Shown here piece after piece: positions 4,544 through 7,402 of a DNA stretch of 64,000 nt. The notes under the pieces were generated by a model. The model was not told the origin of the DNA. It saw only the letters and a program-made list of their open reading frames with translations, and did not search any database. The DNA comes from Microcaldota archaeon (lineage in GTDB: Archaea; Micrarchaeota; Micrarchaeia; Norongarragalinales; Norongarragalinaceae): NCBI GenBank assembly GCA_016207165.1, contig JACQQD010000012.1, positions 1 to 64,000 of the forward strand, in the 5' to 3' direction. How positions within the stretch are numbered: position 1 is the stretch's first letter; every line of letters starts with the position of its first letter. A program made the position numbers and the translations under genes.

Positions 4544-4657
4544 AAGGGGCTCCCGAAATTCAGTGCGGACAAAGGGGACCCGAAACCCTAAATAAACGCG
4601 GACGCCTAGAACGTATTCGGAAACGTTTTTTGTTGGCTTGAAGGGTTAGTGAAGGAC

Positions 4658-7402
4658 ATGGCGGAAAAATCAAAGGCCTTGTACGAGTTTAGAAAACAAG
4701 TCAAGGCCCTCAAAGAGTACCGCGGACGCGGGACGGAACTGGTCACCGTGTACATCACTCCGGGGTACCCCATCCACGAAATCGCGTCCAAACTCCGCGA
4801 CGAATACGGGCAGGCCGGCAACATCAAATCCAAGACCACCCAGAAAAACGTGCAAGGAGCGCTGGAACGCATCCTGAATCATTTGAAGACGTTCAAGAAA
4901 ACGCCGGAAAACGGGGTGGCCTTGTTCGCCGGCAACATTTCGGAGAAAGAGGGCCGCACCGACATCCAACTGTTCACCATCGAGCCGCCCATGCCGCTTC
5001 ACACGCAATTCTACCGGTGCGAAAGCATCTTCGTGACTGAACCGCTGGAGGAGCTCTCCGAGAAAACAGATTCATACGGGTTGGTGGTTTTGGATGGAAA
5101 GGAAGCCACCATCGCGGTTCTGGCAGGAAAGAAAATCAACGTGATCAAGCACGTGCACACCACGGCCCACCAAAAAGTGGCAAAGGGGGGGCAATGCATC
5201 CATGAAAGCGAGTTGGTGACGCTTGCGGATGGGTCCATCGTCCCCATTCTGGAAGCCACCGAAAAATGTGACTTGGCAAGCCTTGACTTTGCCTCTCAAA
5301 AAACGCTAATGGCCAACTGCGACGCCGTATTCAGGCGTCAAGCACAAAAAGCGTACATTTTGACGACCAAAAACCCGAAGACAACGATTCAAACAACGCC
5401 GGAACACGTTTTCTTCGTCATCGGGTCAGAAGGCATTGCGGAGAAACACGTAGAAAACCTCAAAGTCGGCGACCGACTGGTAAGCGTACGGGAAATTGCA
5501 GCACCGCTTGCAAGCTACGTACGCCTGGAAGCCTGCATCCCGCTGAGCACCCCCACGTTAAACGCCGCCGGATGCAACACGCTAACTATGATTCGGCAGC
5601 AACGGGGATTGCGTCAAAAAGACGTGGCCCGGTCAATCCAAACTGACCAAATGTCCGTTTCAGAACTTGAACGTGGAACGGCTAACTTCAAGAAAGAACG
5701 GCTAGCCCGAATCCTTTTATTCTACGGTTTGGACGAAGGGAAATTTTATTCAAAGTACGTTGTACAAAAGCCGTTAATCCAATTCCCGGAAACACTTAAC
5801 CCGCCTTTGGCGCAAATGCTCGGCTACCTCATCGGCGATGGGACACACGACGGAAACCGGTTCATTTTTTACGAACCGGATCGGCAATGCGTCCTGCACT
5901 ACAAGCAATTAATTGAGAACACATTTGGCGTCAAGTGTAAAGTTAAGCCAAAGCCGCACCGCGGGTACCATGAGTTGCGGGCCTACAGCAAGTATCTGGT
6001 TGAAGCCATTGAAACGCTCTTTCCGGAAGCCCTCGATAAAAAAGTACCCCGTAAAGTCATGCAGTCCCCCAGCGACGTCACCGCCGCTTTTGCAAAAGGC
6101 CTGTTTGATGCCGAGGGAAGCGTCGGCAGCGGACGCGTGGCCATTGCCATGGCCAACAAGCAAGTCATCCACGTCTTGCACGCCTTGTTGCTCCGCCAAG
6201 GCATCATTTCAAGCGTCGGACCCAAAAAAGCCAAACACCAGCCTCAATACCAGCTGGAAGTCAACGACTACACTTCCCTAAAGCGATTCGCGGAAGTGAT
6301 TGGCTTTTCTCACGATAGAAAACAACGCGCGTTGTACGCCGTTTTGGCCCGAAAAACGAATAGGAACTATACCGACCAGATTCCATTGAATGGCCGCCTC
6401 GTTTCCAGATTGGCAAAACAAATGGGACTGCGTCACGCCCGATTCAAGGGGTTGCCGGGTTTCCTTAATGGACAGCGAAACATCAGTCGCGAGATTTTCG
6501 CAAACCGCGTGCTCCCCGTTTTCAAGACTCAACTCCAGCGTTTAAGCGAAACACAAGACCTGGAAGACCCAAAGACCCAAGAAGCCCAGCGCATCCTCGA
6601 ATTCCTGGAAAAAACAGCCTCTGGAACCGTCATTCCAGCTATCCTGGCCAAAAAAACCAGCGTCAAACCCACCGGACAATTCATTGACTTGACGATACCT
6701 CAAACCCAAAACTTCATCGTTAACGGGCTGGTCGTCCACAACAGCGCCGCGCGGTACGACCGCCTGCACACCGAAGCCGTGGAATACTATTACAAGCGAA
6801 TCGGAGAAGCCATGGACGCGTTCTTGAACGTGAAAAACTTCAAGGGCGTCATCGTCGGCGGACCGGGGCCCACGAAAGAGAATTTCCTGAAAGCCAACGC
6901 ATTCAATTACCAACTCAACGTCTTGGGCACCGTGGACACAGGGTACACGGACGAATACGGCTTGCGCGAGTTGCTGGAGAAAGGCCAGGATTTAATTGCC
7001 CAACAGGAATCCGTCAAGGAAAAACAACTCATCGACCGCTTCATGAAGGAAGTCTCCACCAACGGTTTGGCGGCGTACGGCTATACGGACATCAAGCAAA
7101 AACTGGAGAACCACCAATTGGAGGCGTTGCTGGTCTCCGAGGATCTGGACTTGATGCAATTTGACGCGGTTTGCTCGCAATGCGGGAAAGTGCGGACGGT
7201 GTTCGGCGAAAAATTCGAGGAAAGCGAGTGCTCCTGCGGCGGCAAGTACAGACTGAAAAGCGATACGCACGCCTCCAACGCCCTGATCGAGGAAGCCGAA
7301 CGCCAAAACGTTCCCGTGGAACTCATTTCGCGGGACACGGCGGAAGGCGCCACGTTCTACGCCACCTTCAAGGGATTGGGCGCGTTTTTGCGATACCGGT
7401 AG
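4658..7402 (+). CDS. prf1: Peptide chain release factor aRF1, interrupted by an intein
   Basis: 914-aa precursor; removing the 516-residue intein leaves 398 aa, normal for aRF1. The N-domain has NIKS at residues 55-58 (stop-codon recognition). The M-domain has the catalytic GGQ at 177-179, which triggers peptidyl-tRNA hydrolysis. The intein starts directly after that glutamine, and the extein resumes with SAARYDRLHTEAVEYYYKR. The C-domain has two cysteine pairs (CSQC and CSCG) in a zinc ribbon. Start: ATG 4658; a GTG at 4649 would add three residues. Release activity should depend on splicing, since the GGQ loop is broken in the precursor. Upstream AT-rich CCTAAATAAACG near 4588 may be the promoter. 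Confidence 0.93.
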   Translation: MAEKSKALYEFRKQVKALKEYRGRGTELVTVYITPGYPIHEIASKLRDEYGQAGNIKSKTTQKNVQGALERILNHLKTFKKTPENGVALFAGNISEKEGRTDIQLFTIEPPMPLHTQFYRCESIFVTEPLEELSEKTDSYGLVVLDGKEATIAVLAGKKINVIKHVHTTAHQKVAKGGQCIHESELVTLADGSIVPILEATEKCDLASLDFASQKTLMANCDAVFRRQAQKAYILTTKNPKTTIQTTPEHVFFVIGSEGIAEKHVENLKVGDRLVSVREIAAPLASYVRLEACIPLSTPTLNAAGCNTLTMIRQQRGLRQKDVARSIQTDQMSVSELERGTANFKKERLARILLFYGLDEGKFYSKYVVQKPLIQFPETLNPPLAQMLGYLIGDGTHDGNRFIFYEPDRQCVLHYKQLIENTFGVKCKVKPKPHRGYHELRAYSKYLVEAIETLFPEALDKKVPRKVMQSPSDVTAAFAKGLFDAEGSVGSGRVAIAMANKQVIHVLHALLLRQGIISSVGPKKAKHQPQYQLEVNDYTSLKRFAEVIGFSHDRKQRALYAVLARKTNRNYTDQIPLNGRLVSRLAKQMGLRHARFKGLPGFLNGQRNISREIFANRVLPVFKTQLQRLSETQDLEDPKTQEAQRILEFLEKTASGTVIPAILAKKTSVKPTGQFIDLTIPQTQNFIVNGLVVHNSAARYDRLHTEAVEYYYKRIGEAMDAFLNVKNFKGVIVGGPGPTKENFLKANAFNYQLNVLGTVDTGYTDEYGLRELLEKGQDLIAQQESVKEKQLIDRFMKEVSTNGLAAYGYTDIKQKLENHQLEALLVSEDLDLMQFDAVCSQCGKVRTVFGEKFEESECSCGGKYRLKSDTHASNALIEEAERQNVPVELISRDTAEGATFYATFKGLGAFLRYR
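5195..6742 (+). mobile_element. Intein with LAGLIDADG endonuclease and internal HTH, inserted after GGQ
   Basis: 516 codons in frame. It begins with Cys (CIHESELVTLADGSIVPI, a splicing block A) and ends FIVNGLVVHN, followed by Ser +1 of the host, the residues needed for protein splicing. Two dodecapeptide motifs, LGYLIGDGT (about 5815) and GLFDAEGSV (about 6097), mark a LAGLIDADG homing endonuclease. Between splicing block B and the first dodecapeptide lies an XRE-like helix-turn-helix (about 5576-5740; IRQQRGLRQKDVARSI, then MSVSELERG). Codon choice looks less GC-biased than in the flanking exteins. Homing activity is inferred, not shown. Confidence 0.9.

What the first reader, a model, noticed from the sequence alone, without database searches (positions are those of the whole stretch)
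5195..6742. Intein inserted exactly behind the catalytic GGQ of the translation release factor
The 516-residue intein starts after Gln of GGQ and the extein resumes with Ser-Ala-Ala-Arg-Tyr. Inteins favour active sites, but I know of no common intein at this site of aRF1. Translation termination would require splicing of the factor itself, giving a possible feedback point (for instance redox or metal inhibition of the Cys1 step).
Basis: partly seen in the sequence, partly recalled or inferred. Interest (0 to 1): 0.75.

Follow-up and report, generated by a model that had tools for sequence, protein, structure and literature searches.

The report
Intein inside archaeal release factor's catalytic loop
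A self-splicing, self-spreading protein insert sits directly behind the catalytic Gly-Gly-Gln of the only translation release factor of a tiny archaeon, and the same spot turns out to be a recurrent insertion site across several phyla of such small archaea, in some lineages as a shrunken form that has apparently been inherited for a very long time.

Summary
A 516-residue class 1 intein (window 5195-6742, +) interrupts aRF1 between GGQ and Ser, and the genome (90% complete) has no second aRF1. It is not a one-off. aRF1 genes split at this position were found in 17 of 301 Micrarchaeota genomes (the window's phylum), 51 of 371 in the phylum of a Woesearchaeota genome and 21 of 80 in that of a Diapherotrites genome, but in none of 120, 121 and 99 genomes from three non-DPANN archaeal phyla (one of the 99 could not be judged). 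Three genomes recorded as complete carry only the interrupted copy. The window's intein has a LAGLIDADG endonuclease, an XRE-type helix-turn-helix, intein-free close relatives and a tree that disagrees with its host gene's: a mobile homing intein. A second, endonuclease-free form of about 131 residues makes its own clade and is carried by all 11 sampled members of one host clade, suggesting long vertical retention. Ten searches of the held library found no description of the site. The redox or metal feedback idea has no support: Cys1 is the only cysteine present in all 38 aligned inteins. Splicing itself is inferred, not shown.

The parts
4658..5194 (+). N-extein of aRF1 (prf1), ATG at 4658 (a GTG at 4649 is also in frame); ends in the catalytic Gly-Gly-Gln (5186-5194)
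   Evidence: the frame also shows NIKS and YRCESIF (motif names recalled, letters)
5195..6742 (+). intein, 516 aa, class 1 (Cys1, block B T-P-E-H, block F Asp, His-Asn end, Ser+1)
5195..5524 (+). N-terminal half of the Hint splicing domain (about residues 1-110)
   Evidence: PF14890/TIGR01445, strands 7-98 in the model
5564..5758 (+). XRE-type helix-turn-helix domain (residues 124-188, five helices)
   Evidence: PF01381 31.7 bits against a cut-off of 23; model helices
5786..6364 (+). two-motif LAGLIDADG homing endonuclease domain (residues 198-390; GYLIGDG and LFDAEG keep Asp215 and Asp305)
   Evidence: PF14528 58.4 bits; I-DmoI and I-Tsp061I align to residues 198-390; motif tally
6392..6622 (+). 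helical accessory region between endonuclease and C-terminal splicing half (residues 400-476)
   Evidence: model; function inferred only
6626..6742 (+). C-terminal half of the Hint domain, ending VVHN
   Evidence: TIGR01443 21.4 bits against 15.6; model
6743..7402 (+). C-extein of aRF1, beginning at the +1 nucleophile Ser (AGC); stop at 7400-7402

Best explanation
The insert is a full-length, class 1 homing intein at a DPANN-specific insertion site (call it aRF1-a, GGQ|S). Inferred chemistry: the precursor is made as one 914-residue chain; Cys1 attacks the Gln-Cys bond, Ser+1 takes over the N-extein, Asn516 cyclises, and the aRF1 halves are joined into an unbroken GGQ-Ser. Until then the GGQ loop carries 516 extra residues and should be inactive, so every aRF1 molecule must be spliced. 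Inferred mobility: the LAGLIDADG domain, probably aided by the helix-turn-helix, cuts intein-free prf1 at the conserved GGQ-Ser codons and repair copies the intein in. The site suits such an element because GGQ cannot change, which keeps the target, and because only a precise deletion is survivable. Shown here: residues, domains, fold prediction, distribution, empty sites, discordant trees. Inferred: splicing and DNA cleavage. A separate endonuclease-free clade (about 131 aa) at the same site represents a fixed, vertically kept end state.
For: Splice residues C1, T/S68, H71, D498, H515 and N516 in 38 of 38 aligned inteins. Domain hits over curated cut-offs. Fold: TliVMA intein, PI-TkoII and PI-PfuI are among the nearest. 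Endonuclease Asp: 34 of 36 full-length inteins keep both; nonsynonymous change is far below synonymous in endonuclease and HTH, e.g. L108/L112 dN/dS 0.10 and 0.12, though synonymous sites are near saturation. Same-genus G277 has no intein while G278 and G000 do; precise empty sites in five comparisons of four carriers with intein-free relatives. The host tree groups G000, G278 and G277 (99/98*), but the intein of G000 goes with that of G283, and a G000+G278 intein clade is rejected (p-AU 0.0149). No second aRF1 in G000 nor in three genomes recorded as complete.
Against: No splicing or cleavage was measured. The helical accessory region has no tested function. In 2 of 36 full-length inteins an endonuclease Asp is lost, so some copies are probably immobile. 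Across 36 inteins, intein and host identities correlate (r 0.60), so transfer is mostly local or inheritance mixes with transfer. The AU test assumes that the pair was chosen before the tree was seen; I named the same-genus pair for taxonomic reasons, but after seeing its low intein identity and a first intein tree.
Confidence: 0.92

Rival explanations
1. Domesticated regulatory intein: splicing is conditional and throttles translation termination, giving a feedback from the state of the cell to aRF1 supply.
For: aRF1 is single copy and presumably essential. Endonuclease-free mini-inteins with all splice residues occur in all 11 sampled members of one host clade (100/97*) with matching subclades, which shows long retention without homing. 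Regulation of splicing has been reported for other inteins (a passage in PMC5874633 and cited titles in PMC5784728).
Against: The window's copy is the mobile form, with intein-free close relatives. No cysteine besides Cys1 is conserved in all. Retention alone is also expected because only an exact deletion is viable.
Confidence: 0.06
2. Decaying passenger: a splicing-competent intein whose endonuclease is no longer active, kept only because it cannot be lost cleanly. (A variant of the best explanation as to mobility, so the two confidences overlap.)
For: Two of 36 full-length relatives have lost an endonuclease Asp, and mini forms arose twice inside the Micrarchaeota clade (G098, G295).
Against: The window copy keeps both LAGLIDADG Asp and an intact HTH, and in close pairs of relatives the endonuclease is about as constrained as the splicing domain.
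Confidence: 0.2
3. Assembly or binning artefact, or a non-splicing fusion gene.
For: The genome is a multi-contig assembly (12 contigs); some related contigs end at the junction.
Against: Identical junctions in many genomes, including three recorded as complete; the reading frame runs through both exteins; all splice residues conserved.
Confidence: 0.01

Closest known systems
TliVMA intein (Thermococcus litoralis V-ATPase A, PDB 7qss) and PhoVMA intein (7qst)
   Same: Hint splicing domain with a LAGLIDADG endonuclease and an accessory domain, helix-turn-helix-like in TliVMA; site inside a catalytic motif (P-loop); best structural matches (VIA Z 35.2 over 388 residues, 22% identity; 31.2 for PhoVMA). 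Accessory-domain and site statements from passages of PMC8966425.
   Different: Different host protein and site. The window intein is larger (516 against 429 and 376 residues), with an XRE-type HTH before the endonuclease and a further helical region after it; that VMA inteins lack the first was not tested residue by residue.
PI-PfuI (1dq3) and PI-TkoII (2cw7)
   Same: Archaeal Hint-LAGLIDADG inteins with accessory domains.
   Different: Host genes are not aRF1 (from recall: ribonucleotide reductase and DNA polymerase); 21-24% identity over 361-388 residues.
Other inteins of the same genome: SMC P-loop, RtcB, 4Fe-4S ferredoxin
   Same: Inteins at catalytic or cofactor-binding motifs.
   Different: Other exteins; Pfam finds LAGLIDADG_3 in two of the three and no HTH family in any at E 0.001.
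Translation-factor inteins (IF2/eIF5B)
   Same: Inteins in a translation factor; eIF5B is listed for eukaryotes in PMC5784728 (passage); an intein-bearing IF-2 model matches part of this insert (NF011418, 53.5 bits, far below its cut-off).
   Different: Initiation, not termination; not at the GGQ of a class I release factor.

Membership tests
Class 1 intein | Cys/Ser/Thr as first residue | tested here: met
   Cys1 in the window and in 38 of 38 aligned inteins
Class 1 intein | Block B Thr-x-x-His | tested here: met
   T68-P-E-H71; T/S and H in 38 of 38
Class 1 intein | His-Asn end followed by a Cys/Ser/Thr | tested here: met
   VVHN|S; HN in 38 of 38
Class 1 intein | Precise in-frame insertion into a protein with uninterrupted homologues | tested here: met
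   Split at TIGR03676 175/174; empty sites in relatives
Class 1 intein | Hint fold | tested here: met
   Predicted model, VIA Z about 20-22 to solved mini-inteins
Class 1 intein | Excision and ligation demonstrated | not testable with these tools
   needs expression
LAGLIDADG homing endonuclease | Two LAGLIDADG motifs with catalytic acidic residues | tested here: met
   Asp215 and Asp305; PF14528 over cut-off
LAGLIDADG homing endonuclease | Patchy distribution and horizontal spread | tested here: met
   Carrier and empty relatives, discordant trees
LAGLIDADG homing endonuclease | Cuts the intein-free allele | not testable with these tools
   needs purified protein
Archaeal release factor aRF1 | Full-length match above the family cut-off, GGQ next to Ser-Ala-Ala-Arg-Tyr once the insert is left out | tested here: met
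   411 bits against 234.7; GGQ|SAARY
Domesticated (regulatory) intein | Endonuclease lost and intein fixed in a lineage | tested here: not met
   Not met for the window's copy (endonuclease present, empty relatives). Met in part for the separate mini-intein clade
Domesticated (regulatory) intein | Splicing responds to a physiological signal | not testable with these tools
   no conserved second cysteine; no assay

The most novel reading that the evidence does not exclude
The GGQ|S junction of aRF1 is a DPANN-wide intein hotspot where two intein lineages, a mobile HTH-LAGLIDADG form and an old endonuclease-free form, occupy the same peptide bond, and in at least one Woesearchaeota-type clade the latter has become a permanent, possibly regulatory maturation step of translation termination, so that every release factor in those cells is made by protein splicing.
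Probability: 0.15. Interest if true: 0.85.

Novelty: new member of a known kind. Interest (0 to 1): 0.55.

Why it matters
Translation termination in several phyla of reduced, hard-to-culture archaea appears to depend on protein splicing of the only class I release factor. The site gives a natural series on one peptide bond: empty, mobile full-length, endonuclease-dead, and long-kept mini-intein. That makes the homing-cycle question (why endonuclease-free inteins persist, and whether any become useful) testable by comparing close relatives: aRF1 of G422 (empty) and G1105 (full) are 93% identical. The roughly 131-residue mini-inteins with natural GGQ|S junctions may also be useful splicing tools.

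Tried and rejected
Rejected: assembly artefact (recurs in genomes recorded as complete); a second intact aRF1 (none over the cut-off besides the split copy in the 17 carrier genomes; the other weak matches are pelota-like); naturally split intein in G011 (the first contig ends inside the intein); contig ends at the junction in G050, G182, G282 and G998 as proof of mixed carrier and empty populations (G050 and G182 ends read GGQ-S, G282 begins just behind it, the end of G998 was not read; conserved GGQ DNA shared between species may break assemblies just as well); frameshifts near GGQ in G284 and G491 as programmed frameshifting (look like single-base errors, not pursued); an endonuclease gene next to mini-inteins (10 neighbouring frames at 4 of 19 loci, none matches an endonuclease family; the other loci not examined).

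Led nowhere: plasmid search (no match); phage search (5 records, partial matches in the endonuclease and C-terminal region at most 28% identity); viral contigs (54 loci, none with the aRF1 junction by motif script). All ten literature searches listed no paper whose title or abstract start describes an intein in aRF1/eRF1, and none of the passages read does; the library lacks most subscription journals and all bioRxiv preprints, and I could not query intein databases. PMC10643990's table (passage) counts 2 DPANN genomes with 1 intein.

Rows dropped or limits: the mini-intein of G628 was not parsed by my script, so 18 of 19 were read. In one search, 32 genomes whose best match was weak were re-searched, not all 301; those with one strong continuous match were taken as intein-free. 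In one search, 58 of 371 were re-searched: 49 split at the site, 9 were contig ends or frameshifts; G301 and G303 came. Other genomes with only fragments or pelota-level matches were not resolved. The 21 of 80 were read from the match table only (one of them, G1081, has its second piece starting at position 185 on another contig). In one search the 10 intein-free rows were a chosen subset, as were the 7 named full-length hosts.

Full report
What is there. The frame 4649-7402 (+) encodes an archaeal class I release factor, aRF1, interrupted by 516 residues. TIGR03676 scores 411 bits against a cut-off of 234.7 for the whole frame and breaks into positions 2-175 and 174-402. The DNA reads GGG GGG CAA (GGQ, 5186-5194), then TGC (Cys1, 5195), and at the other end AAC (6740-6742) followed by AGC (Ser).

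What it is. The frame matches the intein splicing domain (PF14890 56.8 bits against 35.8; TIGR01445 and TIGR01443 over their cut-offs), LAGLIDADG_3 (58.4 against 22.5) and HTH_3 (31.7 against 23) inside the insert. An AlphaFold model from 30 sequences has mean pLDDT 93.8: Hint strands, five helices at 124-188, a LAGLIDADG domain, a helical region at 400-476, and the closing Hint strands. The nearest solved structures are homing inteins: TliVMA (VIA Z 35.2, 388 residues aligned, 22% identity), PI-TkoII, PhoVMA and PI-PfuI. Passages of PMC8966425 say that the accessory domains of TliVMA and PI-TkoII resemble helix-turn-helix DNA-binding domains and that accessory domains modulate cleavage, so an HTH in a homing intein is a known kind of addition.

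Is it alone? No. Among 301 genomes of the same phylum, re-searching the 32 with weak best matches, plus the window's own genome, gave 17 with aRF1 split at this position; in one, G011, the two halves lie on different contigs. In 15 other genomes and the window both junctions were read from sequence (13 and the window, G295 and G299); in G011 the halves were read separately. A scan of named genomes with the intein alignment identifies the phylum as Micrarchaeota, including Candidatus Fermentimicrarchaeum limneticum (complete genome), and finds the same junction in Woesearchaeota, Nanoarchaeota, Pacearchaeota, Aenigmatarchaeota, Diapherotrites, Candidatus Forterrea multitransposorum and archaeon GW2011_AR20. 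In the phylum of one of the Woesearchaeota, 51 of 371 genomes carry the split; in the phylum of a Diapherotrites genome, 21 of 80. In the phylum of a Halorubrum genome 0 of 120 do, all with a match over the cut-off; in that of a Bathyarchaeota genome 0 of 121, with 115 over the cut-off; in that of a Baldrarchaeota genome none of 99 shows the pair of pieces, with 90 over the cut-off, and one (G998) cannot be judged because its contig ends at the junction. Within these samples the site is confined to DPANN archaea (the grouping name DPANN is recalled).

Is splicing needed? The window's genome has one aRF1 and a pelota-like match (that the third match is pelota is my reading of its position and frame length). 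The records named complete (F. limneticum, GW2011_AR20, Forterrea; titles) have only the split copy plus, where found, pelota-like matches. Every one of 38 aligned inteins keeps Cys1, T/S68, His71, Asp498, His515 and Asn516. That splicing happens follows from the need for aRF1; I did not show it. The statement that the precursor is inactive is inference from the GGQ loop being broken.

Is it mobile? The endonuclease keeps both Asp in 34 of 36 full-length inteins and the HTH is present in 29 of 36. In close pairs the endonuclease and HTH change far less at nonsynonymous than synonymous sites (for example 0.10 and 0.12 for L108/L112), with the caution that synonymous sites are near saturation. 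Close relatives differ by presence: G277 has the empty site and G278, same genus, the intein; precise empty sites are seen for G003/G002, G092 and G094/G090, and G037/G022 too. The host tree puts G000 with G278 and G277 (99/98*), while the intein of G000 joins that of G283 from another genus (93/95 in the tree; 100/99* in the 36-intein tree) and a G000+G278 intein clade is rejected with p-AU 0.0149. Identities say the same: G000 against G278 67% in the extein and 33% in the intein, against G283 61% and 48%. Against wide free transfer, Micrarchaeota inteins form one side of the intein tree (100/100*) and intein and host identities correlate overall (r 0.60).

A second form. Of the 49 confirmed splits, 19 have frames of only 495-535 codons. 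The 18 read are inteins of 130-145 residues without endonuclease or HTH, and the splice residues Cys1, block B His and the His-Asn end are kept in all. In a tree of the splicing domain they are one side of a branch (98/86*), whereas their host genes are scattered among hosts of full-length inteins. In the family of G503, 15 of 18 genomes carry an intein: 13 mini and 2 full-length. Eleven of the mini carriers form a host clade (100/97*) with no empty member sampled, and the mini-intein tree repeats their pairs (G1098+G429, G1101+G1102, G1100+G1103), though its 11-member group has only 82/79 support. In the same family a four-species clade holds two full-length carriers and two empty relatives, with G1105 and G422 93% identical in aRF1. 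One family thus shows both the mobile stage and what looks like long vertical retention without homing. Whether the retained form does anything for the cell is open.

Nothing in the sequence supports it. Cys1 is common to this class; no other cysteine of the window intein is conserved in all (best 11 of 38).

Literature. Ten searches of the held library found no description of an intein in aRF1 or eRF1 (listings only, with passages read in PMC5871332, PMC5784728, PMC5874633, PMC8966425, PMC12386605, PMC10643990 and PMC2814812). PMC2814812 (passages) reports that intein sites lie in the most conserved parts of host proteins, which fits GGQ. Absence from this library is weak evidence of novelty.

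Verdict. A real, well-formed homing intein at a site I could not find described, and a recurrent one across DPANN archaea. It works like, and by the testable features is, a class 1 homing intein; new, as far as I could see, are the host protein, the site, its breadth, and the long-kept mini form.

Noticed in passing
G000:C9:2997-4592 (L246), G000:C9:93927-95198 (L247), G000:C6:62912-63913 (L248): Three more inteins in the window's 1.27 Mb genome: in the SMC P-loop (GPNGSGK|C..HN|S), in RtcB, and in a 4Fe-4S ferredoxin where the junction lies inside the cluster motif (CIG|C..HN|CAACAG).
   Followed up: partly
G050:C8, G182:C22, G282:C47 and G998:C454 (contig ends): Contigs of four genomes end within a few codons of the GGQ|S junction. 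Could be mixed carrier/empty populations or assembly breaks at a conserved stretch; unexplained.
   Followed up: partly
prf1 of G278/G277, G002/G003, G022/G037, G092/G094: The +1 Ser codon switches between AGC and TCN among close relatives, also between two intein-free ones; could reflect co-conversion or escape from cleavage, or ordinary serine codon switching.
   Followed up: no
L113 (Pacearchaeota) and L117 (Diapherotrites): Their inteins are sisters (100/100*) although the host aRF1 genes sit in different groups: a likely transfer between phyla.
   Followed up: no
G423:C66 (L244): aRF1 frame of 1102-1104 codons with a 504-residue intein, so the extein part is unusually long.
   Followed up: no
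G651:C42:12887-13618: A second aRF1-like frame (positions 56-314, 96 bits) besides the split copy and a pelota-like match.
   Followed up: no
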